The position numbers and the translations under genes were made by a program. 35,697 nucleotides of DNA, from contig JAFDDR010000007.1 of assembly GCA_019310785.1 (NCBI GenBank), positions 1 through 35,697 of the forward strand, in the 5' to 3' direction. Each line of letters starts with the position of its first letter. Positions within the stretch are counted from its first letter, which is position 1. Origin of the DNA: Deltaproteobacteria bacterium (GTDB lineage: Bacteria; Desulfobacterota; DSM-4660; Desulfatiglandales; Desulfatiglandaceae). Below the pieces are notes generated by a model, which saw only the letters and a program-made list of their open reading frames with translations, searched no databases and had not been told where the DNA came from. Below are positions 1 to 29,886 of the stretch, in pieces.

Positions 1-3000
1 GCCCGGGCGCTTGCAGCGGTCTCGGCCTGGCGGATTGATGATTGATGATTGATGATTGTTGATTGTATTGATTGGGCCTTGGGCCTCGTGCCTTCCGCCT
101 TACGCGTTTCAGTTATCTCTGCCTCCCTTTTTTGAGGCACTGGAACCTGAAAGGGCTTTCCCCCGATTGGGATCAGGAGGGATGCCGAATGCTTATAATC
201 ATGTTCCTGGATGGCTGATGTTCCCTTGTCGTAAAGCGCGTTCAGGTCCACGGGAACCCGTTCTGCAATCAACTGTCCTAAAAGGCGCAAGACCGTGGAT
301 ACGGAGTCCTGGCCCGAAAAGCATGCCGCCCTTGCCACATGGGGCCTGTCTTGAAGAATGTTACGGACCATGCGGGTGCATGAATTTCCAGGTCCCATCT
401 CAAGGAAGATACGGACTCCATCTTTATAGGCTGTATTTATTACTTCAGGAAAATTGATCCCGTGCAATGCCTGGGCTAAAATGGAATCGGCAGCGTTTTC
501 GCGATTGACTTCATAGGACCTTCCCCATGTAGAACTGTAGAAACGGATTCCCGAAGGGGGTGTTGTCTCGAAAAGGTGCAGGTCTCGGTAGGCCTTTTCC
601 ACCTGCCGGACAACTTCACAATGGACCGTGGTTACACCGGACAACGGGAAAAACCGGCAGGCAAGGGCCTCCACTAACTCCTCAACGGCCATGCGGTTCC
701 CGCCTACAAGGCACTCTTCGGGGGTGTTGACGATTAAAAGATAAACTCTCCTCCTGCCTTTGAGGGCCTTTCGGACTATATCCTCTTTACGATTGATCAC
801 CCCAAGCACCCAATCCACTTTTTCGTTATCGGAAAGGTTCCATGCCTTGCGTGCCGCATTGCACGGTCCTGCAAGGTCATCGGTAAAAAGCTTAGAGGAA
901 TTCATACGCACAAGCATCGCATCGCGGTCGGTCCAGAACCCCAATGAAAACAGGGCCGCCGATTCTCCGAGGCTGTAGCCTATGGCCGCGTCAGGCCTCA
1001 CCCCGAAGCCCCGAATGAGATCGCTTATGACGGTGCCTAATGCTACCTGGCCCAAAATTGCAGACTTGGGGTCCTGGTTGATTGCATCTGTGGATTCCGT
1101 ATTCCAGAAAAGGTCAGGCAGGAACTGGTTGAAAAGATAACCGTTTTCATGGTCCTGTTTTCGGAAGATCTCCGGCCAGTGGACGGAAAGCTCACGGCCC
1201 ATTTCTGAGTAGTGGTTTCCCGAACCTGGAAAGACGAATGCCACCTTTCCGCTTCCGCCCATGGGGTCCGGAGAAAAGAAGATACGGTCTACTTCGAAGG
1301 GTTGTAAGGAATTATTGCCGTTCCCGGAAAGCCTTTTGTCAGGGGAGGTTTTAAGGGACTCAATTGAGGAATTAATTTGTGTCAGGAGTTCCTCCCGGCT
1401 GCGAGAGATGAGAGCAATGCCTAATCTGTATTGGGAATCCGTCCGGTTTTGTTTCCACCAGCCACTTGCCAATTGTTCAATAGCTTGTCCCGGCAATTGT
1501 TCCGCATGAGCAAGCAACCGGTTCAACCCTTCTATTATCTCGCTCACATGGTTTCCTTCGATACTGAAAAGGGCTTCGTTTCTCAGGCCCAATGGCTTAC
1601 TCCTCTCTTGCATGCCGGAAGGGCCCTTTGGATTTTCGTATGCTTCCAGGATGACGTGGGTGCAGTTTCCGTCAACACTGAAGGAACTCAGTGCCGCCTT
1701 TCGAGGTCCTTCCGCCCGATTGCGCATCCAGTATTGAGGACCTTGAGGGGAGAAAAACCCGGGTTGCGGGTTGCGGGTTGCGGGTTTCGGGTTGCGAGTT
1801 TCGAGTTGCGGGTTTCGGGTTTCGGGTTGCGAGGTTTGAGTTTCCAGTTTCCAGTTTCCAGTTTCCAGCTTAAGGTTTCTTACGGGTGGCAATATTTCGT
1901 TGTAAAGGCACAGGCAGACTTTCACCAGGGAGGCAAGGCCTGAGGCAGCGCCGGTGTGCCCGATGTCTGCCTTGACGCTTCCCAGGGCGCAACGGGAAGA
2001 TAAGAAAAACTCGGACAGGGCACGGAATTCCATGAGGTCTTCATCCGGGTGCCCGCTGCCGTGGGTCTCTAAATAACTGACCGAGACCGGGTCTATTCCT
2101 GCATCCTCATAGGCCCGTTTCATTGCGGTCTGGTAGGTTTTTATGTCGGGAATATGGGTTTCCACGCCGCCACCTGCGGCCGCGCCCATTCCCTTTATCA
2201 CCGCATAGACCTTATCGCCGGCACGAAGGGCGTGATCTAAAGGCTTGAGAATAACGGCCGAGGCGCCTTCCCCCGTAATCGTGCCGTCGGCCCTCGTGTC
2301 AAAGGGCCGGATATTTCCGGTTCTGGAAAACTCCCGTCCTGCATGTGCCCCGAGGACCGAACGAATATCCCCGGCCAGATCCACGGCCCCAACCACTGCC
2401 TGGTCAATGTCACGGTTTTGCAGCATGCACACTGCGGCATCGAGGGCTCGAATACCCGAGCTTTCCTCGCTTGAGATGGTAAAGCTGGGTCCGCCAATCC
2501 GGAATTCACGGGCAATGCGACTCGCCACAATGCCACCTAAGGCGCCCATGGTCCGGTTGGCGGAAAGTGGTGGACCAGAAGCGTCACGAAGGGATTCAAT
2601 CCAGTCCTTAATATCTTTACCAGACAGATTCAGCCCTAATTGTTTTGACCAGGCCTTGGCCTTTTCGGGAAGCCACCAGCGGAGCTGAAAGTTGGTGGTA
2701 TTCAGGTCGAGGCCGGTCCCGATAAAGACGCCGGTATTCAGCAGGTTCTTCCGGGAGAGGTCCGCGTCGTCTATTGCCCCTTTGACTACATGAAGCATCA
2801 GCAGTTGCTGGGGCAGCATCTCCTCAAGTTCCTTGGGCGGGATGCGATATTGATCTAACGGTATGGAAAACTTATCGATCGTGAAACCTTTAAAGGGAAA
2901 CCTGTCAAGGCCCCGGTCCTTGAACCATTTAGTCTCCTCAGCCCCCCACCAATTGCGGCAGGAACCGGGTTTCACAGAGTCCTTTCCACCAAGCACCCGC

Positions 3001-4535
3001 TCCTGGAATTCCTTAAGAGTATGCCACGGGCCGAAATAAGCCTCCATCCCTACAACGGCAATTTCTGGTTGCTGGTTGCTCGTTTTTGGTTGCTCGTTTC
3101 CAGTTCCAATTTTCAGGTTTTCCCCTGCGCCTTCTGACCTCTGTCCCCCGTCCTCTGACCTCTGATTTCTGACTTCTGTCTTGGAATTCCATTCCTCGAT
3201 GAGGACATGTGCATTGATTCCACCAAACCCGAATGCGCTGACAGCCGCTCGCCTTGGGGTATCATCACCACGCTTTTTCCAGGGCTCGGCCTTTGTCAGG
3301 ACCCTGAAGGGACTGGAATCCATTTTCAGGTCAGGGTGCGGGGTTTTGAAGTTTGCGGTGGGAGGAAGGGTTTTATTTTTGAGCGCTAACAGGACCTTCA
3401 TAAGGGCCGCAGAGCCGGCGGCAGTGAGGAGGTGGCCGATATTGGACTTGACGGAACCGATCACGCATTGTCCGGTTTTCCACCCGTCCTTTCCCCAGAA
3501 GGTTTGAAGGCTTTCAAACTCAACCGCATCGCCTACGGGGGTGCCGGTGGCATGACATTCAATGATATCCACGTCCTTATGGGACCAGTCGGCCTTTTCG
3601 TAGGCCGGGCCCATGGCCCGCAACTGGCCCTCGGACATGGGAGCTAACAGGCTGCCTCCCACGTCGTTTGAAAGCCCGATACCGGCAATCACGGCATAGA
3701 TATGGTCCCCATGACGCAGGGCATCTTCGGTGCGCTTAAGGACAAACATGCCCGCGCCTTCCCCCACCACGAGGCCGTCTCCATTGACCTCAAAAGGGGA
3801 ACATATCCCGGTGGGTGAAAGCGCCCTGAGCTGGGAAAAACCCATCTGGGTATAAAGACAATCAGGCCGGGATAAACCTCCGGTGAGCATGGCGTCTGCC
3901 GTGCCCGAAAGGAGTTGGTCGGCAGCGAGTTTGATGGCGTAGAGGGATGAAGCGCACGCAGCGTCCAAGGTATAGCTTCCAAGGCCGAGCCCTAATGCCC
4001 TGGCAATGATACCACCGGGAAGCCCTGCCACATAACGGTTCACGGGATGGGTTGATCTCTCGCTTTCTCCCTTGATTTCCCCTAAGACCTTTTCCTCAAA
4101 GGTCCTGCCCAAGTACTCGCGGGCAAGGGCCGAAGATTTGTCAGTGGGTAAGGCAATATTACCTATGATCACGCCCACGCGGCTCAAATCCAGATCTTCA
4201 GTAACAGCGTCGCGGAATGCCTGATGTCCGGCGTAAAGGGCTAAATGAAACATAGGGTCGAGTTCTTCGACTAAGGCCCGGCTGATATCGAGTTCCTCTG
4301 AAATGAGTTCAGGGGAAAACCCTTCGACAAAGCAGCCCCGTGTGGAGTAAACCTTGTCGGCCGCGCCTTTTCCGGAATTATATGCATCTTCGGCAGAAAG
4401 CAGCCACCGCCCGTCCGGGACTTGCTTGGTGGAATTGACTCCATTAAGGACATTGGCCCAGAATTGGTCCAGGTCCCGTGCGCCGGGAAATATCCCGCCG
4501 ATTCCAACGATTGCAATTGATTGTGAGTTGTTCAT
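1..4535 (-). CDS. pfaC: Pfa-type megasynthase, KS-CLF-AT (PfaC/Pfa3-like), 3' end beyond window
   Basis: The minus-strand frame is open from ATG 4533-4535 to the left edge, giving 1511 codons with no stop. Residues ~5-470 are a ketosynthase with Cys194 (DAACASS), His328 (CHATGT) and His368 (NIGH). Residues ~510-960 are a second KS fold whose active-site Cys position is Glu691 (SSEESS), while His825 (THGSG) and His860 (IGHT) remain; this is a chain-length-factor domain. Residues ~1092-1400 are an acyltransferase (FPGSG near 1100, GYSLGES with Ser1188). In marine Pfa systems the AT is a separate protein (PfaB); fusion of KS-CLF-AT is known from myxobacterial Pfa3 and thraustochytrid synthases. 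Dehydratase domains probably lie beyond the edge (inference). The start is fixed because the KS motif IAIVGIGG begins six codons later. No Shine-Dalgarno is visible; a terminator-like hairpin precedes it. The linkers are repeat-derived. The cognate pfaA and pfaD lie upstream beyond an opposite-strand insertion. Confidence 0.88.
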   Translation of the reverse strand, partial: MNNSQSIAIVGIGGIFPGARDLDQFWANVLNGVNSTKQVPDGRWLLSAEDAYNSGKGAADKVYSTRGCFVEGFSPELISEELDISRALVEELDPMFHLALYAGHQAFRDAVTEDLDLSRVGVIIGNIALPTDKSSALAREYLGRTFEEKVLGEIKGESERSTHPVNRYVAGLPGGIIARALGLGLGSYTLDAACASSLYAIKLAADQLLSGTADAMLTGGLSRPDCLYTQMGFSQLRALSPTGICSPFEVNGDGLVVGEGAGMFVLKRTEDALRHGDHIYAVIAGIGLSNDVGGSLLAPMSEGQLRAMGPAYEKADWSHKDVDIIECHATGTPVGDAVEFESLQTFWGKDGWKTGQCVIGSVKSNIGHLLTAAGSAALMKVLLALKNKTLPPTANFKTPHPDLKMDSSPFRVLTKAEPWKKRGDDTPRRAAVSAFGFGGINAHVLIEEWNSKTEVRNQRSEDGGQRSEGAGENLKIGTGNEQPKTSNQQPEIAVVGMEAYFGPWHTLKEFQERVLGGKDSVKPGSCRNWWGAEETKWFKDRGLDRFPFKGFTIDKFSIPLDQYRIPPKELEEMLPQQLLMLHVVKGAIDDADLSRKNLLNTGVFIGTGLDLNTTNFQLRWWLPEKAKAWSKQLGLNLSGKDIKDWIESLRDASGPPLSANRTMGALGGIVASRIAREFRIGGPSFTISSEESSGIRALDAAVCMLQNRDIDQAVVGAVDLAGDIRSVLGAHAGREFSRTGNIRPFDTRADGTITGEGASAVILKPLDHALRAGDKVYAVIKGMGAAAGGGVETHIPDIKTYQTAMKRAYEDAGIDPVSVSYLETHGSGHPDEDLMEFRALSEFFLSSRCALGSVKADIGHTGAASGLASLVKVCLCLYNEILPPVRNLKLETGNWKLETQTSQPETRNPQLETRNPKPATRNPQPGFFSPQGPQYWMRNRAEGPRKAALSSFSVDGNCTHVILEAYENPKGPSGMQERSKPLGLRNEALFSIEGNHVSEIIEGLNRLLAHAEQLPGQAIEQLASGWWKQNRTDSQYRLGIALISRSREELLTQINSSIESLKTSPDKRLSGNGNNSLQPFEVDRIFFSPDPMGGSGKVAFVFPGSGNHYSEMGRELSVHWPEIFRKQDHENGYLFNQFLPDLFWNTESTDAINQDPKSAILGQVALGTVISDLIRGFGVRPDAAIGYSLGESAALFSLGFWTDRDAMLVRMNSSKLFTDDLAGPCNAARKAWNLSDNEKVDWVLGVINRKEDIVRKALKGRRRVYLLIVNTPEECLVGGNRMAVEELVEALACRFFPLSGVTTVHCEVVRQVEKAYRDLHLFETTPPSGIRFYSSTWGRSYEVNRENAADSILAQALHGINFPEVINTAYKDGVRIFLEMGPGNSCTRMVRNILQDRPHVARAACFSGQDSVSTVLRLLGQLIAERVPVDLNALYDKGTSAIQEHDYKHSASLLIPIGGKPFQVPVPQKREAEITETRKAEGTRPKAQSIQSTIINHQSSIRQAETAASAR
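34..75. repeat. ATTGATG-type short tandem repeat inside coding sequence
   Basis: Tandem copies of attgatg/attgttg lie in the frame of the minus-strand megasynthase and encode a polar Ile-Asn-His-Gln-Ser segment after the AT domain. The array is out of character with the flanking codons but causes no stop in that frame. Confidence 0.75.
1761..1869. repeat. GCGGGTT / TTTCCAG short tandem repeats in the CLF-AT linker
   Basis: About 110 bp of degenerate heptamers (gcgggtt, tcgggtt) run into four copies of tttccag. In the minus-strand reading frame they encode alternating LETGNWK- and TRNPQP-like residues between the CLF and AT domains. The reading frame stays open on both sides. Confidence 0.8.
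3061..3181. repeat. Low-complexity repeats in the KS-CLF linker
   Basis: The tract contains ggttgct repeats followed by repeated tctgacctctg / tctgacttctg units. In the minus-strand frame it encodes a Gln/Ser/Asn/Glu-rich linker between the first KS and the CLF domain. It resembles intergenic repeat DNA, but the frame is intact. Confidence 0.75.
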
Positions 4536-4539
4536 TATG

Positions 4540-4590
4540 AAAAAAATTGCCGTTTCAGACCCCGGGTTTAAATCCGGGGAAAAAAACGGC
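4540..4590 (-). terminator. Terminator/attenuator-like hairpin immediately before the KS-CLF-AT start codon
   Basis: Reading the minus strand, GCCGTTT (4590-4584) pairs with AAACGGC (4555-4549). Inside it CCCCGG (4579-4574) pairs with CCGGGG (4565-4560) around an 8-nt loop. The stem is followed by AA and seven T (4546-4540). The ATG begins at 4535, so the U tract ends four bases before the start codon, where a ribosome-binding site should be. The geometry is that of an intrinsic terminator; an attenuator or translation-blocking role is inference. The plus strand lacks a U tail after the stem. Confidence 0.6.
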
Positions 4591-4653
4591 TGTCTCCCAA
4601 AAAAATAACTTCTCAGTTCGGGGGCTCCGACCTGCCATGTTTCTTTAAGGCGC

Positions 4654-4691
4654 TCTGTAACCCTGAACGGTGAACCTTGAGCCTGTGAACG
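4654..4691. repeat. TGAAC-rich short repeat tract
   Basis: Degenerate tandem units of ccctgaac / ggtgaacc / tgtgaac lie upstream of the KS-CLF-AT gene. A similar tract occurs at 16645-16680, so related repeat DNA flanks both ends of the region between the third pfa gene's start and the pfaD promoter. Confidence 0.55.
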
Positions 4692-4780
4692 CCTGTCTTT
4701 TAACATGTATCATATCAAGTTGCAAGCCGAGGCATCTGCGTTTTGCCGGCAATCAACCTAAACCTATTCATATCAACAGT

Positions 4781-4809
4781 TTGACTTTCCAATGCTGAGT
4801 GTGTAGCAT
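4781..4809 (+). promoter_or_regulatory. Putative sigma-70 promoter of vapBC
   Basis: TTGACT (4781-4786) and TAGCAT (4804-4809) are separated by 17 nt, just before the antitoxin ribosome-binding site GGAGGTG (4821-4827). The short inverted element CATA-G-TATG overlaps the -10 region and could be an antitoxin operator; that role is inferred from VapB autoregulation. Confidence 0.45.
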
Positions 4810-4831
4810 AGTATGTATATGGAGGTGTATT

Positions 4832-5032
4832 ATGAGAACAAATATCGTGCTTGACGATGATCTGGTTAAAGAAGCCTTTAAATATTCCGGGGCAAAGACA
4901 AAGAAGGAGCTTATCCACCTGGCATTGCAGGAGCTTGTTGAAAATAAGCAGAGGTTAAATCTCCTCGATCTGGAGGGTGAAATCGAATTTGACGCAGATT
5001 ACGATTACAAGCGGTTACGCGAGGGGAAATGA
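4832..5032 (+). CDS. vapB: VapB-family antitoxin
   Basis: This 66-aa protein starts MRTNIVLDDDLVKEAF, the short beta-strand plus helix expected of a ribbon-helix-helix DNA-binding antitoxin (type II VapB/DUF2191-like). Its acidic, aromatic C-terminal tail (about residues 45-66) would wrap the toxin. The ATG at 4832 is preferred over an upstream start because GGAGGTG lies five bases before it and homologues begin at this motif. It overlaps the toxin gene by four bases (ATGA), indicating translational coupling. Antitoxin and toxin-antitoxin complex usually repress their own promoter. The pair sits on the plus strand between minus-strand pfa genes, suggesting acquired DNA. Confidence 0.85.
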   Translation: MRTNIVLDDDLVKEAFKYSGAKTKKELIHLALQELVENKQRLNLLDLEGEIEFDADYDYKRLREGK

Positions 5033-5424
5033 TCTTAACAGACACATCTGTGCTCATCGACTACTTCAGGGGCGTGAAAAATAAAGGCGTTACAAAATTC
5101 AAGAAAGTCCTGGAGCACGATATTCCTTTCGGGATCACCTCCTTCATATTTCAGGAATTACTGCAAGGGGCAAAAACAGAAAAAGAATACAGGCTGTTAA
5201 AAAAATACCTTTCCAGCCAGCGTCTTTTTCAACCTAAAGATCCTGTTGACTCCTCTGCTCAAGCAGCAAGAATTTACTTTGATTGCCGTAAAAGGGGGAT
5301 AACGATAAGAAGCTCGGTTGATTGCCTTATTGCTCAAATTTCAATAGAACATAACCTGCTTCTCCTTCATAATGGCCGTGATTTTGTTCTGATGAAGGAA
5401 CTTATTGATCTGAAATTCTATTAG
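5029..5424 (+). CDS. vapC: VapC-family PIN-domain toxin ribonuclease
   Basis: This 131-aa PIN-domain protein should act as a Mg-dependent endoribonuclease that blocks translation when not bound by VapB. The acidic catalytic set is visible: Asp5 (TDTSVLID), Glu43 (FQELLQG), Asp98 (SVDCLIA) and Asp118 (GRDF). Length is typical of the family. The ATG overlaps the vapB stop as ATGA. All expected catalytic residues are present, so it looks active rather than decayed. The RNA target cannot be read from sequence; initiator tRNA or rRNA are known targets of relatives. Confidence 0.9.
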   Translation: MILTDTSVLIDYFRGVKNKGVTKFKKVLEHDIPFGITSFIFQELLQGAKTEKEYRLLKKYLSSQRLFQPKDPVDSSAQAARIYFDCRKRGITIRSSVDCLIAQISIEHNLLLLHNGRDFVLMKELIDLKFY

Positions 5425-5667
5425 AAGGCCATTTATGTGATGGATCCCATCAGGGTGTCAGATAAAATGCCTGGCTGTGCCGGATTGCATTCCGGCACGT
5501 TAGGTTGATCTTTCATAGCCGGTCACTTGCGTATATGATAGAGTGAAAAATCCGACTGACATTGGAACCCATTGATATTGCAAGTCAAGATATAACATAT
5601 TAGATTGCGTGTTACTCCTATTGGATCATGGGTCACCCTCAATAAATGATTCTCGATTACTTTCTGT
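5425..5667. other. Non-coding gap with one perfect hairpin
   Basis: No gene is supported here. GTGCCGGA (5477-5484) and TCCGGCAC (5491-5498) form a perfect 8-bp stem with a 6-nt loop shortly after vapC. There is no T run on either side, so it may be a REP-like hairpin or a weak terminator. Confidence 0.45.
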
Positions 5668-5695
5668 TTGACGCCAAATTAACTTTTTTTATGGT
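5668..5695 (+). promoter_or_regulatory. Putative promoter of the aconitase X genes
   Basis: TTGACG (5668-5673) and TATGGT (5690-5695) are spaced by 16 nt. They lie about 75 nt before the ATG, which has a purine-rich site GAGAGG (5757-5762) at suitable distance. The match is moderate and based on consensus only. Confidence 0.4.
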
Positions 5696-5770
5696 ACAAC
5701 ATTTGGAAAGCGGATCGGACAACCTCATAGAAATAACCATCCAAACGTGGAATAGAGAGAGGCAAACATA

Positions 5771-7030: not shown

Positions 7031-7425
7031 GCGCCCATATGGTAAGCGCCGGCAAGGCGAAAGGGCAGGCCCTGGTCTATAAGGGACCATTTTCTTTCAT
7101 GGGGGATCTGGATCCGAACACGGGAAGGATCCCCGTTCCAAGGCACCTGTTGGAGGGGGAAAACATAGCGAATAAGGTTTTTGTTTTCACGACGGGTAAG
7201 GGATCAAGCGGGGGTGATTGTATTGCATGGATGGCCAAGGAGAATGGAAATGCGCCTTCAGCCATCATCTGCCTGGACAGTGAACCAGTATTGTCGGGAG
7301 CCGTTATCATTACCGGCATCCCGACCGTGGATCGTCCGGATAAGGATATATTCGAGCTGATTCAGACGGGAGATTACGTAAAAGTCGATGCGACAGCAGG
7401 CATTATTGAAATCGTTGGCAAATAG
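7021..7425 (+). CDS. Aconitase X small (swivelling-domain) subunit
   Basis: This 134-aa protein is the DUF126 swivelling domain that completes aconitase X. It shows the family core KVFVFTTGKGSSGG, where the serine loop contacts substrate, then a nucleotide-free beta/alpha layer ending EIVGK. ATG 7021 is chosen because AGGAG (7006-7010) lies 10 nt upstream and homologues start near here; a longer start at 6973 would run through the large subunit. The 10-bp overlap implies coupled translation and a fixed ratio of subunits. The specific substrate is unknown. Confidence 0.85.
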   Translation: MEISAHMVSAGKAKGQALVYKGPFSFMGDLDPNTGRIPVPRHLLEGENIANKVFVFTTGKGSSGGDCIAWMAKENGNAPSAIICLDSEPVLSGAVIITGIPTVDRPDKDIFELIQTGDYVKVDATAGIIEIVGK

Positions 7426-7956
7426 ACGTATCAGGTCAATATTTGGGGGAACTCGAATTTATGAAGACATCTCTTGCATAGCGACCGGCCTCGATCGAGG
7501 CATGCGGATTTCTTTTCAAAGAGCCGCATAACCTTGCTGTGGCTCGAATCACGGCGGTCCACTTTAAAACTCGGCCCTGGACAGCCCCTTCGATGATAGC
7601 ACCTATTATGTTTGGCTGTCCCACCTGTCGGAAGCCGGCTGGTTAATGTATTTGGGGCGTTAAAGATGCGTTGTAGAGATAAAAATGCGCCTCTTTGAAA
7701 AGAGATCCGCATGCCTCACCAATATGGACTAATGCCGCTAAATATTGAGCTGATACAAATAGACCAATGATAAAGCCAAATAACATATTGCGTTGCATTT
7801 GCCTTTTCATTAACAAGTCCGATGGGGTCGCCTATAAGGAAAAAGGGGACTATAATGGAACACCTGTAAGGTCAAATATGATTAAAGCCTTGCGGCTTTT
7901 CTGGTGGTGAGCTTAGGCGCAATTAGATCTGTTAATTTGATGAAAAAGGTAAAACC
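7426..7956. other. Intergenic region between convergent acnX and pfaA
   Basis: About 530 bp separate two convergent transcription units. A short stem AAAGCC-TTGC-GGCTTT (7884-7899) could be a weak bidirectional terminator. A 62-codon minus-strand frame (7436-7624, GTG start) shows no recognisable domain and no good ribosome-binding site, so I do not call it. It could be gene debris from whatever event placed the plus-strand block here. Confidence 0.4.
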
Positions 7957-10900
7957 TCAGGCCGAGGCCTTGATCTCATTTTGCAGGGGCAACCGGTTAC
8001 ACTTGAATGCGCAGTTGAGTGATGCATCCATAACGCACTCATAGTCTTCCATTCGGGCAATCAATTTTCCGGTGACAGGATCGATAAACTCTATATCGGC
8101 TAATGCGCGATGTTCACTGTCTCTGGTAACACTGATTACAATACGTACACCCTGCTTGGGAAATACGGGTTGAAACCGGCGAAATCTTCCGGCAAAGCAG
8201 GGCAGGGCCCCGACGCCGTTGTTCTCGAAACTCCACAGGATCATCATCTGGAAGGCGCTGTCTAAGACGAGTGGGTCGGCTAACCAGGTATTGCGCAGGG
8301 GGTTTTTAATCCACTCTGCCGGGATAGGGGCAGTGGAGACGGAAGCGACAATCCCCTTGCGGGAGCAACCTTCCACCTGCCGAATACCCTGAAAATGAGG
8401 CCCGTGAAATAGGAGATCGGTGTTGTATATTTCCGTTTCATTCCGGTTGTAAGGTGCAAGAGAAACCCCGGTGATGGATGCATCCCCTTTGGGGAGCGTT
8501 GACCCTAATACGATCTCGGCACTTGCATGGATGTATTCCCTGCCGTTTCCTCCGGCGCTTATAAGCTTGACTGGCGACATCCGAAATCCATCCTTTTTCA
8601 CGGTCCTGCCCGCCATGACCCGGATAGTGCAGGGCTTTTCCTCGTCAAGAATAACCCCTTTTAACATCCGAAGATTGTCAAACCCGATGAACCGCAAGCC
8701 AGGGTTGCCGTGCAGGGCGCCGTGGGCCATCCACTCAATCATAACGGCCATGGGAAGGACAGGCCTGCCGTTCAATACGTGGGACTGTAAAAACGGGTAA
8801 TTCTCTATATCCAATTGTCGTTCAAAGGCCATTGAAAGAGGGGAGGTTTCGGGGATAACCTCTGCCCGTGTATCGCGTGCGGAAAGGGATGCCTCTTTAT
8901 TATGTTCATCGAGATTTCTTCCCATGATCACCACTTCAACGGGCCGGTCCGAGTTGGCACTGATCTCCCTTACCAGATAATTGGCCCCGGCTTTAAGGTC
9001 GATCAGGGCCACGCCCTCTTTTTCAAAGACTTTCCTGAGGGAAGAGGTGACCATGCCCCCATTCCAGGGCCCCCAGTTCACTGAGACCACGCGGCAGTTC
9101 GGAAGGAGCCGTGATTGCTGTTGGGCGAATTTATTCAAGACTTCATTGGCTGCCGCATAGTCCGCTTGGCCTGACCGGCCGTGCCGTCCCGTAAAGGATG
9201 AGAACAGGACCATAACCTTGAGATCCTCCAACTCCAGGACATCGAGCAAGGCACGCAGTCCTGTGACCTTAGTGGAATAGACCAGATCGAATTGTTCGTC
9301 CGTCTTTTCTTCAATGAGACGGTCTGCAAGCACACCCGCACCATGAATAAGACCCTTGACGGGACCCACATGATCGCGGACCTCTTTAATCACGGAGCGA
9401 ACGTTTTCGGTGTCCCGGATATCCACTGAACGGTAAATGACCTTAGCGCCTGCCGCTTCAATCCGTGCGATATTGCGAAGCAGTTCCCGGTTGGCAATGA
9501 TTGATCTGTGCTGTTTTGCGATCTCTTTGAGCGATGGTCTTTCTCCTGCACGCTCAACAAGCGCTTTTTTGATTTCGGCTTCCGTGCTCAGTGTGGCAAG
9601 CCAGTCCGGTTCAGGACCGGGCTCATTACTGCGACCCAATAGGACCAGGGTCGGCTTAAATGCCCTGGAAAGCTCCGTGGCTATTTCGGCAGTTATCCCG
9701 CGGGCACCGCCCGTAATTACAACAGCATCGCCCGTGCTCAGGGGAATTTTAGTAGAGGGTAATAACAGGGCTTCTTCAAGTGGTGCGGGTAACAATTGCA
9801 GATTGTATCGACCTTTGTTCGAAAGGCCCACCTCCAGAGGTCCTTTCAAGAACATTTCATCCACAATGGCCGCGGATGCCTGGGCGGGATTTTCAAAGTC
9901 GCCGGATAAATCGAGTGCCTTGCAATGCACCTCGGACCATTCGTGCCGGGCAGTCTTCAATAGTCCCGCGAGCCCGCCGGAAGCGGGATCGTTTCCTCCG
10001 TTGAGGCTTGTCAGGCCAAAAGCGCCGTCTAAACGCGAGACCGTAAGGAGAACGGAACCGCCGTTCATACCGGCTTTTCTCAGCCCCGAACCGGCAAGGC
10101 GCAGGAGTTTAAAACTGTCTTTTAAGAACGTGTCTCCCGCATTTTTAGCCGGAGATAGAATAATCAATCCCCCGAGGTTCGAGGGCCTTTCCATGTCACG
10201 CAGGTCCTTGAAGGAGATCAACTCGGGCCGGTAATTCAAGGAATGCAGTTTATCCTTTATCAAAAGAGCAAGTCCGGAATCTTCTTCCGTGATCCAGATT
10301 CGGGATCCTTGTGAAACGGAAAGTTTTTGCCGGGTCTCGTTTTCGTCTAATCTGATCAGGGAAAGAACAAATCTTTCAATGGTATTCTCCCGGAGTGCGG
10401 GTTCTTCTGATATCTGCTCGGGAAAAACCTCACCTGTTTCTGTTTCGCCAGCGGACGAAAGGCCCTTGGAAACCGGGAGTTTTTCTTCCGGGAATGCTCC
10501 CGAAGTTCCGGAAAGGAATTCAACGATCTGGTGAAGGGTCTTCAAAGAACCTAAGTGTTCGGGTTTGACTGCCGGGGCTTCAGGCAATTTCTCTTGGAGC
10601 ACGGAAAGGATCTCAACACGTTTGATGGAGTCTATGCCCAGATCGGAATCCAATTCCATGTCCATTTCGAGCATCTCTGAAGGATAACCGGTCTTATCCG
10701 AGACCACTTCCAGGAGAATCGTCCCGATATTTGAATGAGCCTGTGCCGTCATAGACCGGGGCTTGGTTTTTGAATCGGCTTTTTCCGGTGAAATATTCTT
10801 GGGTTGTTCTTCAATATTTTTCCCTTCGGAAAGGAATTCTACGATCTGCCCAAGGGTCTTCAAAGAACCTAAATGTTCGGGTTTGACGGCCGGGGCTTCA

Positions 10901-13900
10901 GGCAATTTTTCGTGGAGTACGGAAAGTATCTCCACGCGCTTGATGGAATCGATACCCAGGTCGGAATCCAATTCCATGTCCATTTCAAGCATGTCCACGG
11001 GATAACCGGTCTTGTCTGAGACCACTTTTAAAAGGATTCTTTCGACTGCCCCGGAACCGGGATCAGGAACGGAAGGTTCAGATGTCAAGAACTGCTCATC
11101 AGCAGGAGTGACCGGTTGATTTTGAGGTTGGATTGGAGCGGTATCAATTCGGGGCGCATGTTCCGGAATTACTAACTCACTCGTCTCTTTTGTCATCCCT
11201 AAAGAGGCCTGCAAGAGTTTGCGCTGCTGTTCCATGAGGCCCTGAATGGTGCGCTGGGCCGTGTCCTGGCCCTCGAGAAACTGCTGGTGAAGTTGTGCGG
11301 TCTGCTCCTGGATTTTCTGTAAATACGCCAAGTTCTCCTGGGTCGTGCGAAGGGCCTCTGTTAGGGAATCAAAACCTGCATGTGGAGAAGCAGGCATTTT
11401 ACCGATCGGTTGATGGGAAGTAACTGAAACAGGAACCGTCCCGGATGAACCGGGCGGAACTGAAACTTTTGGGGGTGACAGAGGGGGTCTCGAAGGTTTA
11501 GGCTTCCTATAATTAGCACCGCAAATGGGGACCGTCATTTGTCCCTTTTTCCTTTGGGCCGGCACTTCTCTGTTATCAGGAAGCGGACTCCACAGGGATA
11601 AATTTGTATGATGTCCCTGTGCGGACAGAGAGGCGAGGGCGCAGGCTAAGTCAAAAACGCCGGAACGTTTCCCTGAGGATATGTCCAAAGAGAGCGCATT
11701 ATGTTCGCGCTTTTCTAATATGGCATTTACCAGTCCGGTGAGCCTGGCCCCGGGACCGACTTCAAGAAAAGTCCTTACCCCGGAACGGTACATGTTTTCT
11801 ATTTCTTCGATGAACTCAACCGGATTGACCAATTGAGCGGCAAGAACTCGCCGTGCCTCTTCCGGATCCTCAGGGTACTCCTTTGCAGTACTATTTGCAA
11901 AGACCGGGATACCGTTCCCGGAAAATTCAATATCCCGGAGTATTGATAAAAAAGGCTTTTCCAAATGTCCGACCAAGGAACTATGAAATGCCGCTGAAAC
12001 AGGGAGACGTATGTTACGTATCTCACGCTTAGCAAGGGCCTGAGCAGCCCTTTTGATCTCCTCCGTGAAGCCGGAGAGGACCGCCTGATTGGGGGCGTTC
12101 TTGTTTGCAACTATAATATTCAGCTTTTCTTCGCTGATTATTCTTTCAACAGAGGATAGCGGGGCCTGGGCCGCAAGCATGGCGCCCTTGTCACCGTTTC
12201 CTCGAGACATCAAAAGACCGCGTAAAACTGAAAGGGAATGAAGGGCCTTTGTGCTGATACGGCCGGATACGCAGAGTGCCGTGAGTTCTCCGTAACTGTG
12301 CCCTGCAACGGCTTCTGGTCGAACCTCGAAATGATTGAGTACCTTGAGCGCTCCGAGGCTGACCGCACCGATTGCGGGTTGAGCAACCTGGGTTGCGCGC
12401 AGTGCGCTTTCGTTATTTTCTTCAGCCTCTTCATTAAAGACCGGGTGCGGATATATGTAATCCGTCAGGGGCTTGCAGTCTCCCGAATCCTGACGGTCTT
12501 GTATCTCTTTGTTGCGAAGCTTCAGAATGCCGTCCGTAAAGGATTGATCCGCTTCAACAAGTACTTGCTGCATTTGAGGAAACCGGCAGGCAAGGTCCCG
12601 AAGCATGCCCACGTACTGCGACCCCTGTCCTGGAAATATAAGGCCGAGCTTACCGGGTACTGAACCGGCACCAAAATAGGCGCCGTCCGGGGTGTTCCAT
12701 GATTTCTTTTGATGGTATTGGTTTAACATGGCAAGGGCATTGCCAATGGCCCCGGATATATCGGTCCTGTCTTTTTCGACGACCATAACCAGGCGGAAGT
12801 CATGCTTTTTATTGAACTTAGCGCGGGACCTCTCTGCCTTTTCCCGGAATACGTCCCAGGAGAGGTCTGCGGGCCATGCCTCGATCGCCGATTTGAGTTC
12901 ATCCGCGCTTTTGGCTGAAAAGGGAAGGATCTGCACATGGCCGTCCCAGACAATCTCTGATTTTTCAGACCTGGATTCCTCGAGAACACAATGAAAATTG
13001 CTTCCGCCAAAACCAAAGGCACTTACAACCGCACGCCGCGGGTGGTCCTTTTTAGGCATCCAGGGTCTTTTTTCGGTGTTGACATAGAAAGGCGATCGGC
13101 CATTTGAAATCTCTTTCGGCGGTTGGGTAACTTTGATGGTCGGCGGGAGCACTTTGTGGTGCAGTGCCATTGCGGTCTTTATGATACCTGCCACTCCGGC
13201 CGCGGCCTTGGTGTGGCCCATCTGGGACTTTACCGATCCCAGAGCACACCATGTCCTGTCTTTATTAGCGGAGCCGTAAACCTGAATGAGGGCGGAAAGT
13301 TCTGTGGCATCCCCTGCCCTGGTGCCGGTCCCGTGCGCCTCTACGAGCTCAATAGTGTCTGCAGAGATACCGGTTGATTCATATGCCTGTGTCAATGCAG
13401 CGGTCTGCCCGGCAATGCTGGGGGCATAGATGGCCTGGCCCTTTCCATCACTCGATGTTCCCATGCCCCGGATGACCGCATAGATCCTGTCTTGATCGCG
13501 CCGGGCATCCTCAAGCCTTTTAAGAAGCATTATTCCAAGGCCCTCGCCGAGGATGGTTCCATCGGCCGTTATATCAAAAGGCCTGGCGTCCCCTGTGGGA
13601 GAGAGGGCCTGGGTCTGGCTGAAGCAGGTGTACATAAAAATATCGTTGAATGTGTCAACACCGCCTGTTATCACCATGTCGGAGCGGCCGGAAGAAAGTT
13701 CCATCCCGGCTAAGTGCAGAGCGCCCATGGAGCTGGCGCAGGCAGCATCTATGACGCAGTTGGTCCCGCCAAGATTGAAGGTCTTTGCAACACGTCCTGC
13801 CACCACGTTGCCCAGAAGTCCGGGGAAGGAGTTTTCCTGCCAGGAAACATAGGAATCGGAGATCCTTTTGACCGCGTCTTCGGCCACGGAATCCTCCACA

Positions 13901-14388
13901 CCCGACTCTTTCAGGCATTTTCGCCAGATGGGATGGCCGAGACGGGCACCCAATGGAAGCACTAACTCCAGGGTGCCGGTTACACCCAAAATTACGCTGA
14001 CCCGATCTCGATCAAAGTCTCGGTCCGGCCCGTAGCCGGCATCTTTGAGGGCCTGCTGCGTAACCACCAATGCAAGGAGTTGCGATGTGTCAATGGCCTC
14101 GATGGCGTTGGGCGGGATGCCGAACTCCATGGGGTTGAATTGGACAGGAGAAATGAACCCGCCACGGGAAGCACTGATACTCTCTGGCGCCGGGGAGTCT
14201 TTTGCACAATAATCTTCGGCCCTCCAGTGGGTCTTGGGGACCCCTGTGATGGCATCGACACGGTTTGTTATGTTTGCCCAATAGGCGTCAAGATCGTCGG
14301 CCTTTGGGAACAGGCAGCCAATGCCGATGATGGCAAGGGGTGACTGTTTAAAGGAATTCTTTGATTTTATATCTTTGTCCATATTCAA
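7957..14388 (-). CDS. pfaA: Pfa synthase subunit PfaA: KS-AT-ACP-ACP-KR-DH
   Basis: This 2143-aa multidomain synthase would build a fatty-acyl or polyene chain in the cytosol from malonyl units. The ketosynthase (~12-470) has Cys217 (DAACASS), His352 (HGTGT) and His392. The acyltransferase (~575-880) has Ser698 (GHSYGE) and an AFHS motif typical of malonyl selection. A Gln-rich coiled coil (~1005-1075) precedes two ACPs with phosphopantetheine serines Ser1148 and Ser1254 (LGIDS). The ketoreductase has TGGARGI near 1560 and Tyr1744 (DYAAAN). A C-terminal hot-dog dehydratase has His1870 (HVLNGRPVLP). Marine PfaA usually carries five or more ACPs, so two is low. The TTG at 14388 overlaps the pfaD stop (TTGA) with AAGGA 9 nt upstream; ATG 14382 is the alternative start (numbering uses the TTG). 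The exact lipid product is unknown. Confidence 0.93.
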   Translation of the reverse strand: MNMDKDIKSKNSFKQSPLAIIGIGCLFPKADDLDAYWANITNRVDAITGVPKTHWRAEDYCAKDSPAPESISASRGGFISPVQFNPMEFGIPPNAIEAIDTSQLLALVVTQQALKDAGYGPDRDFDRDRVSVILGVTGTLELVLPLGARLGHPIWRKCLKESGVEDSVAEDAVKRISDSYVSWQENSFPGLLGNVVAGRVAKTFNLGGTNCVIDAACASSMGALHLAGMELSSGRSDMVITGGVDTFNDIFMYTCFSQTQALSPTGDARPFDITADGTILGEGLGIMLLKRLEDARRDQDRIYAVIRGMGTSSDGKGQAIYAPSIAGQTAALTQAYESTGISADTIELVEAHGTGTRAGDATELSALIQVYGSANKDRTWCALGSVKSQMGHTKAAAGVAGIIKTAMALHHKVLPPTIKVTQPPKEISNGRSPFYVNTEKRPWMPKKDHPRRAVVSAFGFGGSNFHCVLEESRSEKSEIVWDGHVQILPFSAKSADELKSAIEAWPADLSWDVFREKAERSRAKFNKKHDFRLVMVVEKDRTDISGAIGNALAMLNQYHQKKSWNTPDGAYFGAGSVPGKLGLIFPGQGSQYVGMLRDLACRFPQMQQVLVEADQSFTDGILKLRNKEIQDRQDSGDCKPLTDYIYPHPVFNEEAEENNESALRATQVAQPAIGAVSLGALKVLNHFEVRPEAVAGHSYGELTALCVSGRISTKALHSLSVLRGLLMSRGNGDKGAMLAAQAPLSSVERIISEEKLNIIVANKNAPNQAVLSGFTEEIKRAAQALAKREIRNIRLPVSAAFHSSLVGHLEKPFLSILRDIEFSGNGIPVFANSTAKEYPEDPEEARRVLAAQLVNPVEFIEEIENMYRSGVRTFLEVGPGARLTGLVNAILEKREHNALSLDISSGKRSGVFDLACALASLSAQGHHTNLSLWSPLPDNREVPAQRKKGQMTVPICGANYRKPKPSRPPLSPPKVSVPPGSSGTVPVSVTSHQPIGKMPASPHAGFDSLTEALRTTQENLAYLQKIQEQTAQLHQQFLEGQDTAQRTIQGLMEQQRKLLQASLGMTKETSELVIPEHAPRIDTAPIQPQNQPVTPADEQFLTSEPSVPDPGSGAVERILLKVVSDKTGYPVDMLEMDMELDSDLGIDSIKRVEILSVLHEKLPEAPAVKPEHLGSLKTLGQIVEFLSEGKNIEEQPKNISPEKADSKTKPRSMTAQAHSNIGTILLEVVSDKTGYPSEMLEMDMELDSDLGIDSIKRVEILSVLQEKLPEAPAVKPEHLGSLKTLHQIVEFLSGTSGAFPEEKLPVSKGLSSAGETETGEVFPEQISEEPALRENTIERFVLSLIRLDENETRQKLSVSQGSRIWITEEDSGLALLIKDKLHSLNYRPELISFKDLRDMERPSNLGGLIILSPAKNAGDTFLKDSFKLLRLAGSGLRKAGMNGGSVLLTVSRLDGAFGLTSLNGGNDPASGGLAGLLKTARHEWSEVHCKALDLSGDFENPAQASAAIVDEMFLKGPLEVGLSNKGRYNLQLLPAPLEEALLLPSTKIPLSTGDAVVITGGARGITAEIATELSRAFKPTLVLLGRSNEPGPEPDWLATLSTEAEIKKALVERAGERPSLKEIAKQHRSIIANRELLRNIARIEAAGAKVIYRSVDIRDTENVRSVIKEVRDHVGPVKGLIHGAGVLADRLIEEKTDEQFDLVYSTKVTGLRALLDVLELEDLKVMVLFSSFTGRHGRSGQADYAAANEVLNKFAQQQSRLLPNCRVVSVNWGPWNGGMVTSSLRKVFEKEGVALIDLKAGANYLVREISANSDRPVEVVIMGRNLDEHNKEASLSARDTRAEVIPETSPLSMAFERQLDIENYPFLQSHVLNGRPVLPMAVMIEWMAHGALHGNPGLRFIGFDNLRMLKGVILDEEKPCTIRVMAGRTVKKDGFRMSPVKLISAGGNGREYIHASAEIVLGSTLPKGDASITGVSLAPYNRNETEIYNTDLLFHGPHFQGIRQVEGCSRKGIVASVSTAPIPAEWIKNPLRNTWLADPLVLDSAFQMMILWSFENNGVGALPCFAGRFRRFQPVFPKQGVRIVISVTRDSEHRALADIEFIDPVTGKLIARMEDYECVMDASLNCAFKCNRLPLQNEIKASA
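10507..10710 (-). repeat. ACP-encoding repeat unit 2
   Basis: This is the downstream copy of a direct duplication encoding the second ACP of pfaA. It matches the unit at 10825-11028 closely at the DNA level, including the MDMELDSDLGIDSIKRVEIL region. The offset between the two phosphopantetheine serine codons is exactly 318 bp (106 codons). Confidence 0.75.
10825..11028 (-). repeat. ACP-encoding repeat unit 1
   Basis: This is the upstream copy of the tandem ACP duplication in pfaA, carrying Ser1148. The high nucleotide identity with the second unit suggests recent duplication or ongoing gene conversion. Confidence 0.75.
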
Positions 14389-16040
14389 CTTAGATATTCC
14401 TTAATCTGTTCCTGCTTTATAGGGACAACACGAAGTAAATGTGGAGAAAACATAATCCCCTGGGAGCGAAGATTGTTGATACGCATGATAACAGCGGCCC
14501 CGTAAAGAAGGTTGAGGGCCACGGTTACGACCTTTCTTTGATCGAGATGTGCTAAGAAGGAGTCCTTTACCCATTCATTGAATGCGGCCATGGCCGGCCC
14601 GCACCAGATCTGATAGTCGATCCTCCGGGAAGCCTCTCCCGAAGTTGCCCAGCGGGATGTCTTGCCGAGATACCAGCGAAATATGAGGGCCATGAGGTGT
14701 TTCGGGTCAGCTTCAGCACGTTCTACCTGGGTCGGATCGGAATTTAAGAAATACCCGCGCGTCTCGTTCCAGATGGTTTCAAAGGAATCGTGGAATATAT
14801 TTTTTTCTATCATGGAGCGGACGCTTGCCGGGATTTCCTGAATGCTGTTAAAGGCACAATAGGCCTCATAAAGTTTTGATGCGCGCATTGCGAACATGGT
14901 GCCGCGCTTGAGTACCTGGACCGTTACGCCCATCTCAAACATGTCTGCTGCCGGGGCCATGGTGACATCGCCCTGCTGTGCCTGGGCAAGCATTTCCTTC
15001 ACGTCTATTGATGTTCCGGATTCAACGCAGGCCTGGTTGATGGATCCGGTCATCACGTAGGCCGCTCCCATTGCAAAGGCGGCTGCGGCCGAGGGGGGGG
15101 TGGAAATTCCCCCTGCCGTGCCCACTCGAAGTGTCTGTTTAAAGCGGAACCTATCCTGCATTCGGTCACGGAGGGCCAATATTGTGGGCAAAAGGGCGGT
15201 AGCGGGCCGCTTGTCCGTATGTCCCCCGGAATCGGCTTCAGCCGTCAGGTCCTGGGCCATGGGGATTTGCGCAGCTAAACGGGCCTGCTCTTGGGTTAGA
15301 TTCCCCTGTGAAATAAGCTCGCCTAAGAAGCGGTCCGGCGGCGGGGCAAAAAATTTGGAGGCCACTTCCACGCGGGATATCTTTGCAATGATCCGGTTCG
15401 GAGTTACGATGTCACCTGAACTGTTGCAGTGAATACCGTGAACACGATATCGGACCACCGGCAGGGTCAGGTCCATGTAAGCGGATGCCTCCACGAGTTT
15501 AACCCCGCGGCGGAGATATAGATCCACGAGGGACGCTTCAAGGTCCGGGTCATTGGGACTGTGGATAAGATCGAAACCATAAGGGCCGTCCGTAAGATGG
15601 CCGGAGATACGATCAATGGCGGATTCCACGGATTCGATGGGCAACCCGGCCGAGCCGAAAAAGCCTAACATGCCATTTTGTCCCATAGCCTCGACCATGT
15701 CACATGAACTGATGCCGTTTGCCATGGATCCGGCAACATAAGGGTAAAGCATGCCGTGTTCCGCGCAAAACGAAGGATCCCCTAAACTCTTAATCCGGCA
15801 GGCGGGAACATATGCGGCGATTGGGAGTGAATTGGCCGATTCTGTTCGTTTTCCAAAGACTCCCGTGCCCCCGACTCCGATCGCTAACTTACGGTCATTT
15901 CTAACAATGTAGAAAGGATTATGGATATTGAAGACCGCTTCTTTCTGGTCTCGTTCGTTTGAGGATGGCTCAACCCCGTCTGCGCTCCACCAGCCCAAAT
16001 TTGTTTCCAATTGCCCGAATATTTGGAACAGATCACTCAC
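14385..16040 (-). CDS. pfaD: Pfa synthase enoyl reductase PfaD
   Basis: This 551-aa protein is the trans-acting FMN-dependent enoyl reductase of Pfa systems (nitronate monooxygenase/TIM-barrel fold, PfaD subfamily). Visible family signatures include the N-terminal GWWSADG segment, VPACRIKSLGDPSFC, LGFFGSAGLP, ANDP-like LIHSPNDP, the SGGHTDKRP phosphate-binding loop, VGTAGGISTPP and GAAYVMTGSINQ. It would reduce enoyl-ACP intermediates at selected cycles, so its use decides which double bonds remain. The GTG start at 16040 has GGAGGAG about 8 nt upstream. It is the first gene of the minus-strand transcript and its stop overlaps the pfaA start. Length is normal for PfaD (about 530-550). Confidence 0.94.
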   Translation of the reverse strand: MSDLFQIFGQLETNLGWWSADGVEPSSNERDQKEAVFNIHNPFYIVRNDRKLAIGVGGTGVFGKRTESANSLPIAAYVPACRIKSLGDPSFCAEHGMLYPYVAGSMANGISSCDMVEAMGQNGMLGFFGSAGLPIESVESAIDRISGHLTDGPYGFDLIHSPNDPDLEASLVDLYLRRGVKLVEASAYMDLTLPVVRYRVHGIHCNSSGDIVTPNRIIAKISRVEVASKFFAPPPDRFLGELISQGNLTQEQARLAAQIPMAQDLTAEADSGGHTDKRPATALLPTILALRDRMQDRFRFKQTLRVGTAGGISTPPSAAAAFAMGAAYVMTGSINQACVESGTSIDVKEMLAQAQQGDVTMAPAADMFEMGVTVQVLKRGTMFAMRASKLYEAYCAFNSIQEIPASVRSMIEKNIFHDSFETIWNETRGYFLNSDPTQVERAEADPKHLMALIFRWYLGKTSRWATSGEASRRIDYQIWCGPAMAAFNEWVKDSFLAHLDQRKVVTVALNLLYGAAVIMRINNLRSQGIMFSPHLLRVVPIKQEQIKEYLS

Positions 16041-22728: not shown

Positions 22729-22945
22729 AAATAAGCACCAAATTACAAATGGTTCGACAGGCTCACCATCCTGAGCAAAGTCGAAGGATAAATCTCAAAT
22801 TACAATATCCAATTACCAAAACCGGATTAAAAAACGAACGTCCAACATTGAGTTCGACGTTCATCTTTTTTCTGTTTGCTATTTCGAATTTTGGTAATTG
22901 TGGTTTATTTGTTATTTGTGATTTGATATTTGGAATTTCCAGTAA
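22729..22945. repeat. Interspersed imperfect palindrome, copy 1
   Basis: This AT-rich element between ybeY and pdxJ contains a perfect inverted pair caattaccaaaa (22810-22821) / ttttggtaattg (22889-22900). It also contains an inner pair GAACGTC (22836-22842) / GACGTTC (22856-22862) and a split hairpin TTCGAC...GTCGAA (22753-22786). The word aagcaccaaattacaaat (22733-22750) recurs in inverted orientation in the element at 29690-29886. No gene is supported here. Confidence 0.65.
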
Positions 22946-29689: not shown

Positions 29690-29886
29690 CAAACAACAAA
29701 TCCCAAATAACAATCAAATTCCAATGACCGAAATTCAAAACTCCAAACCAGATATGATCTCGAGGAAAGAGGCAAATAAATTGAGAAAGATATTTTCATC
29801 AATTCTGGAAAAATCGAAGTAGTTTAGGTCATTGGTATTTGGGATTTATTTGTAATTTGGTGCTTGGTATTTGGGATTTTGAAATT
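29690..29886. repeat. Interspersed imperfect palindrome, copy 2
   Basis: This AT-rich element between the kinase gene and tsaD has inverted arms CCAATGACC (29721-29729) / GGTCATTGG (29827-29835), and aaatcccaaataa near 29698 opposite tatttgggattt near 29837. Its right arm, read on the minus strand, contains aagcaccaaattacaaat, shared with the element at 22729-22945. No gene is supported in 29610-29942. Confidence 0.65.

What the first reader, a model, noticed from the sequence alone, without database searches (positions are those of the whole stretch)
34..3181. In-frame simple repeats occupy all three visible interdomain linkers of the KS-CLF-AT protein
Three unrelated repeat tracts (3061-3181, 1761-1869, 34-75) sit exactly at KS/CLF, CLF/AT and post-AT boundaries, keep the frame open, and look like the intergenic repeat DNA of such genomes. 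This suggests linkers are tolerated sites where intergenic-type repeats expand, giving variable linker length and perhaps phase-variable expression if unit number changes frame (heptamers are not multiples of three).
Basis: partly seen in the sequence, partly recalled or inferred. Interest (0 to 1): 0.7.

Follow-up and report, generated by a model that had tools for sequence, protein, structure and literature searches.

The report
Heptamer repeats inside a lipid-synthase gene
In an uncultured sulfate-reducer-like bacterium, the seven-base tandem repeats that litter its intergenic DNA have also spread, in frame, into surface loops and linkers of a giant fatty-acid synthase gene, making those stretches the fastest-changing parts of the protein; nothing shows that they act as an on/off switch.

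Summary
The repeats are real and far beyond chance. All three tracts (33-107, 1760-1870, 3062-3181, minus-strand gene) are one kind of thing: degenerate 7-bp tandem arrays. The gene is a PfaB-PfaC fusion (KS-CLF-AT-DH-DH in a congener) of a PUFA-type lipid synthase, beside pfaA and pfaD; it is cut by the contig end. Two placements hold: tract 1 is at KS/CLF and tract 3 lies between AT and the dehydratases. Tract 2 is misplaced: it lies inside the CLF fold, in the loop before the C-terminal hairpin; the true CLF/AT linker has no tract. A homologue has two more tracts, one between dehydratases and one inside a dehydratase domain. Three congeneric MAGs carry different heptamer peptides of different lengths at the same sites; ~49% identical homologues in a sister genus have the same domains with short, repeat-free linkers. 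Heptamer tracts are genome-wide and mostly intergenic. In-frame copies occur in other genes too (receiver and histidine-kinase loops, PilQ-like linker, PfaA linker). The 'tolerated site' reading is supported. Phase variation is not: tracts are degenerate, mid-gene, in frame in all four orthologues, with length differences mostly not three-unit steps. It is a new variant of a known phenomenon.

The parts
3..4706 (-). PfaB-PfaC fusion (KS-CLF-AT...), 1568 codons open, cut by the contig end at window position 1; likely start ATG at 4531-4533 (MNNS...)
   Evidence: Pfam ketoacyl-synt x2, Acyl_transf_1, TIGR02816 pfaB_fam; KS DAACASS and AT GYSLGES motifs present; dN/dS 0.17 outside the tracts
3062..3181 (-). 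Tract 1: heptamer mosaic (coding strand GGTCAGA-type then GCAACCA-type), residues 509-549, KS/CLF interdomain linker
   Evidence: 41 aa between EEW and EIAV here, 53 and 67 aa in congeners, 20 aa and repeat-free in G075/G076/G077
1760..1870 (-). Tract 2: GCAACCC/GAAACCC units (c. 11) then GAAACTG units (4.3 exact), residues 946-983, in an internal loop of the CLF domain
   Evidence: 45 aa between LPP and PQGPQYW here, 30/34/20 in congeners, 19 in G075
33..107 (-). Tract 3: ATCAATC units running into AAGGCNN units, residues c. 1533-1559, AT-DH interdomain linker
   Evidence: repeat remnant at same site in L057, repeat-free in G075/G076
7957..14388 (-). pfaA-like gene (KS-AT-2xACP-KR-DH) of the same cluster; no heptamer tract
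   Evidence: TIGR02813, 1492.7 bits, cut-off 1010.1
14385..16040 (-). pfaD-like enoyl reductase gene of the same cluster
   Evidence: TIGR02814, 628.1 bits, cut-off 449.25
22852..22937 (.). Intergenic period-7 tract (TATTTG.. family) of the same general kind
29827..29886 (.). Intergenic period-7 tract

Best explanation
These are in-gene members of a genome-wide population of degenerate heptanucleotide tandem repeats. Arrays grow, shrink and turn over by mutation and slippage-like events (inferred) in this lineage. Nearly all survive only between genes. Inside genes they persist only where the reading frame is kept, no stop arises and the encoded low-complexity hydrophilic peptide falls in a linker, a terminal extension or a solvent-side loop (position shown, selection inferred). 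Because 7 = 1 mod 3, a heptamer array on a given strand encodes the same seven-residue peptide repeat in every frame (shown by translation), so the peptide is indifferent to phase while the downstream frame is not; retained length changes are those whose net indel is a multiple of three. In this PfaBC synthase at least three such sites in this gene, and five seen across the genus, have been occupied. The result is fast-changing linker length without a demonstrated function.
For: Genome-wide excess of period 7 only, absent from a sampled closed genome of another genus (G034). Coding/noncoding density contrast of 1 per 218 kb against 11 per 62 kb. Same sites, different repeat families and lengths in congeners, and repeat-free shorter linkers in sister-genus homologues of the same architecture. 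Indels concentrated in tracts (35/35 residues own vs G001), identity 0.90 outside and 0.48 inside, dN/dS 0.17 against 0.62. Frame-independent peptide. Intergenic-type tracts of 60 nt or more have only 24% of frames open, while all in-gene ones are open with GRAVY -1.0 to -2.5. Recurrence in unrelated genes at loops or linkers: receiver loop (L092 and L185), HATPase_c loop (L185), Gfo/Idh-LbH linker (L059), PfaA linker next to an ACP (L139), an inferred AMIN-secretin linker of a PilQ-like protein (L223), and N-terminal extensions of RsmI-, QueG-, UvrC- and TPR-like proteins.
Against: Three to five tracts in one gene is far above the coding background (about 1 per 218 kb), so tolerance alone may not explain why this gene has so many. 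How arrays first enter a coding sequence (growth from a local seed or insertion of an array) is not resolved. Orientation bias of in-gene against intergenic tracts is not significant (9:2 against 24:15, p = 0.29). Gene calls for the density figures come from a home-made codon-score caller.
Confidence: 0.78

Rival explanations
1. Translational phase variation: copy-number slippage in one or more tracts shifts the frame and switches the synthase off and on, as in neuO of E. coli K1.
For: Units of 7 shift the frame unless they change in threes; neuO is a proven in-gene heptanucleotide switch (PMC13001214); up to 4.3 exact units in tract 2.
Against: Tracts are degenerate (lag-7 identity 0.65-0.85, longest exact run 16-30 bp), lie mid-gene to late in the gene, and all four orthologues are in frame with no stops, whereas 65.6% of neuO alleles are out of frame. 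Only 2 of 9 pairwise length differences (6 units each) are multiples of 21 nt (from lengths), about what chance gives.
Confidence: 0.06
2. Adaptive linkers: the repeat peptides are selected as flexible, extensible spacers that tune distances between KS, CLF, AT and DH domains.
For: Hydrophilic N/Q/P/S/T/R/E-rich peptides sit at linkers; NeuO activity is reported to rise with repeat-region length (cited in PMC13001214); tracts are concentrated in one multidomain gene.
Against: Sister-genus homologues work with 20-aa repeat-free linkers (activity assumed from intact frames); tract 2 and tract 5 are inside domains, not spacers; peptide sequence is poorly conserved (dN/dS 0.5-0.6).
Confidence: 0.1
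3. Insertion of pre-formed arrays by a mobile-element-like process, in the manner of Rickettsia palindromic elements, rather than growth in place. (This concerns origin and is compatible with the best explanation of why tracts persist.)
For: The same unit families recur in unrelated genes and intergenic regions; the two-family order GGTCAGA-type then GCAACCA-type appears at tract 1 (own, G002), the DH-DH tract of L057 and the receiver loop of L185.
Against: No flanking terminal repeats or target duplications were sought systematically; graded unit numbers at the same site among congeners (tract 2: c. 4 to 16 units) fit growth in place after a first event.
Confidence: 0.2
4. Assembly or binning artefact.
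For: The window's contig ends 32 bp beyond tract 3, and other contigs of the gene end early.
Against: Three independently named MAGs (L056, L057, L058) carry tracts at the same sites within open frames; tracts 1 and 2 are spanned inside long contigs.
Confidence: 0.01

Closest known systems
TAACTGA heptamer direct repeats of marine Beggiatoaceae, cyanobacteria and others (MacGregor 2015, PMC4679880)
   Same: Heptanucleotide direct repeats, mostly intergenic, some inside ORFs; tolerance at protein periphery or between modules and dependence on stop codons by orientation were already proposed there
   Different: One fixed unit there, mainly upstream of start codons; here many drifting unit families, several sites in one gene including loops inside enzyme folds, and no significant orientation bias
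neuO heptanucleotide tract (AAGACTC)n of E. coli K1 prophage CUS-3 (PMC13001214)
   Same: In-gene heptamer array encoding a heptapeptide repeat; frame depends on unit number modulo 3
   Different: neuO tract is 5'-terminal, of one unit, 3-53 copies, variable within strains and proven phase-variable; here degenerate, internal, and in frame in all four orthologues
Rickettsia palindromic elements (Ogata et al. 2000, 2002; reviewed in PMC10969869)
   Same: Non-coding-type repeat DNA present in frame within unrelated protein-coding genes, apparently compatible with the protein fold
   Different: RPEs are c. 150-bp palindromic families; here 7-bp tandem units without palindromes
G-rich heptameric repeats GGGAATC (Xanthomonas) and GGGGA(C/T)T (Nostoc) (PMC4692102); heptanucleotide elements of Geobacter metallireducens (PMC2700814)
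   Same: Lineage-wide heptamer arrays, mostly intergenic; G. metallireducens has 49 elements in intergenic and intragenic places
   Different: Different units; no comparison of orthologous proteins with and without tracts was found in the passages read
Type C pfaBC [KS-CLF-AT-DH2] of Desulfatibacillum alkenivorans and relatives (Shulse and Allen 2011, PMC3098273)
   Same: Same fused architecture and deltaproteobacterial setting
   Different: The passages read say nothing about repeats; the G075/G076 homologues have repeat-free linkers

Membership tests
Heptanucleotide tandem repeat (SSR) population | Period of exactly 7 dominating over other periods, at many loci in the genome | tested here: met
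   38 lag-7 segments at score >=15 against 0-4 at other lags from 4 to 13 in 435 kb; 12 per 280 kb at score >=14 in unbiased contigs; null 0
Heptanucleotide tandem repeat (SSR) population | Predominantly intergenic | tested here: met
   11 in 62 kb noncoding against 1 in 218 kb coding
Phase-variable contingency locus | Long, pure tract | tested here: not met
   lag-7 identity 0.65-0.85 in the own tracts, longest exact run 2.3-4.3 units
Phase-variable contingency locus | Out-of-frame alleles occur among strains | tested here: inconclusive
   4 of 4 species-level orthologues in frame; no strains or reads available
Phase-variable contingency locus | Length differs in whole units, ON when the number is a multiple of three | tested here: not met
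   2 of 9 pairwise length differences are multiples of 21 nt
PfaBC fusion of PUFA-type secondary lipid synthases | KS-CLF-AT followed by FabA-type DH domains, beside pfaA and pfaD | tested here: met
   the DH domains are seen only in homologue L057 because the window's gene is cut
PfaBC fusion of PUFA-type secondary lipid synthases | Makes a polyunsaturated or related secondary lipid | not testable with these tools
   needs lipid analysis
Rickettsia palindromic element-like insertion | Palindromic element of defined length | tested here: not met
   tandem 7-mers of varying copy number; no palindrome seen in the in-gene tracts
TAACTGA-type leader repeats | Fixed orientation toward a downstream start codon | tested here: not met
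   24 sense and 15 antisense between co-directional genes, p = 0.20

The most novel reading that the evidence does not exclude
Heptamer arrays in this lineage disperse and colonise coding genes at structurally permissive loops as a regular source of new loop and linker sequence. Their phase-indifferent heptapeptide makes 7-mers specially suited to this, and large multidomain synthases accumulate them as length-tunable linkers.
Probability: 0.2. Interest if true: 0.65.

Novelty: new variant of a known kind. Interest (0 to 1): 0.42.

Why it matters
It gives a clean before/after comparison (sister-genus enzymes without tracts, own-genus enzymes with different tracts at the same sites) of non-coding-type repeat DNA becoming protein sequence. 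It also maps insertion-tolerant sites of a PUFA-type synthase, useful to protein engineers, and bears on the open question of why heptamers are so over-represented in bacterial genomes. It further warns that low-complexity peptides such as NPQPATR, TSNQQPA or RSEVRGQ in annotated proteins of this group can be translated repeat DNA.

Tried and rejected
AlphaFold2 of KS-CLF from eight homologues gave an unusable model (mean pLDDT 32), so loop placement rests on sequence alignment to solved 6riw and on the KS/CLF comparison. A '5'-leader orientation' hypothesis (arrays oriented toward the next start codon) was tested and not supported (24:15, p = 0.20). Lineage-specific matching of in-gene and intergenic unit families was considered, but the counts do not support it once pfaBC itself is left out. 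Rfam found nothing in the window. No paper on heptamer arrays in this group was found with the searches used.

Full report
What is in the window. The window is the whole of contig C113 of a 4.02-Mb, 341-contig genome. The gene in question is the minus-strand ORF 3..4706 (1568 codons, cut by the contig end). Profile searches find two ketosynthase-fold domains and an acyltransferase of the PfaB type. The best solved relative is 6riw (a PfaC-like KS-CLF, deposited as 'ORF10'). A PfaD-like gene (14385-16040) and a PfaA-like gene (7957-14388) complete a PUFA-type cluster. A congeneric homologue (L057) shows that FabA-type dehydratases follow the AT, which is the pfaBC fusion architecture [KS-CLF-AT-DH2] described for deltaproteobacteria (PMC3098273).

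The observation. TRF and a lag-7 scan find tracts at 33-107, 1760-1870 and 3062-3181, with lag-7 scores of 31, 73 and 34. Ten second-order Markov sequences of 280 kb reached at most 12. Autocorrelation of each tract peaks only at lags 7 and 14. They are therefore one kind of repeat, not three unrelated ones; tracts 1 and 2 share GGTTGC and GTTTCC units, and tract 3 runs on from GATTGAT into GGGCCTT-type units.

Where they sit. Tract 1 (residues 509-549) fills the KS/CLF linker, between HVLIEEW (500-506) and EIAVVGM (548). Tract 3 (about 1533-1559) lies after the AT and before the dehydratases. Tract 2 (946-983) is not at the CLF/AT boundary. It is followed by the CLF C-terminal hairpin RKAALSSFSVDGNCTHVILEA (1002-1022), which aligns to residues 863-889 of 6riw, where the preceding helix ends at 853. 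So tract 2 is an internal loop of the CLF fold, and the true CLF/AT linker (about 1026-1150) has no tract. In L057 two further tracts occur, one between dehydratases (1287-1328) and one at 1620-1630, inside a FabA-like domain by comparison with G075 (FabA match 2167-2297, insertion at about 2237).

Relatives. Three congeneric MAGs (L056 = G001, L058 = G002, L057 = G003; 82-89% identical) carry tracts at the same sites with different units and lengths. Between conserved anchors tract 1 is 41, 53 and 67 residues (own, G001, G002) and tract 2 is 45, 30, 34 and 20 (own, G001, G002, G003). Own against G001 has 35 indel residues, all in tracts, none in 1284 other aligned positions; identity is 0.90 outside and 0.48 inside. 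Other pairs also show one non-repeat indel in a CLF loop. dN/dS is 0.17 outside the tracts and 0.62 inside (G001), so the enzyme is under ordinary purifying selection and the tract peptides much less so. The sister genus (G075, G076, G077; about 49% identical) has the same architecture with 20-residue repeat-free KS/CLF linkers and a 19-residue tract-2 loop in G075, although G075 does have heptamer tracts elsewhere in its genome.

The genome-wide setting. In 435 kb sampled from the own genome, lag-7 segments at score >=15 number 38, against 0 to 4 at other lags from 4 to 13 (part of this sample was chosen because it held hits). In 280 kb of arbitrary contigs there are 12 at score >=14, of which one is coding (1 in 218 kb against 11 in 62 kb). 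Four hundred kb of a closed genome of another genus (G034) has none at score >=14. One unit family was found at three or more units in 14 of 61 related genomes, so the phenomenon is patchy by lineage.

Other genes. In-frame heptamer peptides recur in the same receiver-domain loop of two hybrid kinases (L092 in G000, L185 in G002), in the ATPase domain of L185 just before its GPGSTFHFTTRF motif, between Gfo/Idh and acyltransferase domains (L059), next to an ACP in a PfaA of G076 (L139), and in a PilQ-like protein of another genus (L223; family named from the sequence alone). They also form N-terminal extensions of proteins that look like RsmI, QueG, CbiO, UvrC and TPR proteins (several of these names are my reading of the sequence, not a profile match). 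Interdomain linkers are thus not the only tolerated sites; loops inside domains and N-termini are used too.

Why heptamers fit. Translation of pure heptamer arrays gives the same seven-residue repeat in all three frames of a strand, because 7 = 1 mod 3. Only stop codons, strand and the net length matter. Of intergenic-type tracts of 60 nt or more, 24% of frames are open, and open frames have a median GRAVY of -0.22; all tracts in the pfa genes are open with GRAVY -1.0 to -2.5. That fits selection for stop-free, hydrophilic readings, although orthologues are not independent and strand bias against intergenic tracts is not significant.

Phase variation. It is not supported. The own tracts have lag-7 identities of 0.65-0.85 and exact runs of at most 4.3 units. 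They sit mid-gene or later. All four orthologues are in frame, whereas about two thirds of alleles of the proven heptanucleotide switch neuO are out of frame (PMC13001214). Only 2 of 9 pairwise tract-length differences are multiples of 21 nt, so off-register indels must have restored the frame. It is not excluded, since no within-population data were available.

What is shown and what is inferred. Shown: period, position, genome-wide distribution, replacement of linker content among congeners, repeat-free homologues in a sister genus, and conserved frame. Inferred: slippage-like turnover, selection as the filter, exposure of the loops (no usable structure model), and lack of function. Not resolved: how an array first enters a coding sequence, and why this one gene has so many.

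Known or new. Heptamer arrays are known from Beggiatoaceae and cyanobacteria (PMC4679880), Xanthomonas and Nostoc (PMC4692102) and Geobacter (PMC2700814); in-ORF occurrence and tolerance at protein margins were discussed in the first. In-frame repeat DNA in unrelated genes is known from Rickettsia palindromic elements (PMC10969869). The present case adds drifting unit families, multiple sites in one megasynthase including intradomain loops, and a direct comparison with repeat-free homologues. I rate it a new variant of a known kind.

Noticed in passing
window 4800-7957: In congeners pfaA and pfaBC are adjacent (about 66-170 nt apart; L058, L056); here about 3.3 kb lies between them, with a PIN-toxin gene (5029-5424) preceded by a small ORF that looks like its antitoxin, an aconitase-X gene (5771-7030) and a 150-aa ORF (6973-7425), all on the opposite strand: an insertion into the synthase cluster.
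   Followed up: partly
window 1760-1830: The + strand (template for pfaBC) carries about ten GGG runs spaced by four bases (GGGTTGC/GGGTTTC), a possible G-quadruplex former, like the GGGAATC repeats described in PMC4692102.
   Followed up: no
L059:5502-5536: A heptamer tract in the opposite orientation seems to encode a hydrophobic stretch (TVLCLLSSIFSL) in a membrane protein that looks like an O-antigen ligase; array strand may be matched to the protein environment.
   Followed up: no
L065:17889-17961 and L065:18993-19103; L062:10003-10166: Intergenic heptamer arrays often occur as inverted pairs (for example TGATTGATGATT...TTTTTCTTTTTT...CAATCAACAATC), possibly promoter- or terminator-associated.
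   Followed up: partly
L166 and L167 (G075 contigs C2, C3): Contigs of the sister-genus genome with very long mosaic heptamer arrays (up to 250 bp) of quite different unit families (CTTTGAC, GCTCACG, TCCTCTG).
   Followed up: no
CLF loop before CALGSVKADIGH in L058 and L057 (own residues c. 905-910): A 6- to 23-residue insertion in a CLF loop of G002 and G003 (GNIGVHDVPPYEGPANVPIHTNQLIF in G002) that is not heptamer-derived; the only sizeable indel outside the tracts.
   Followed up: no
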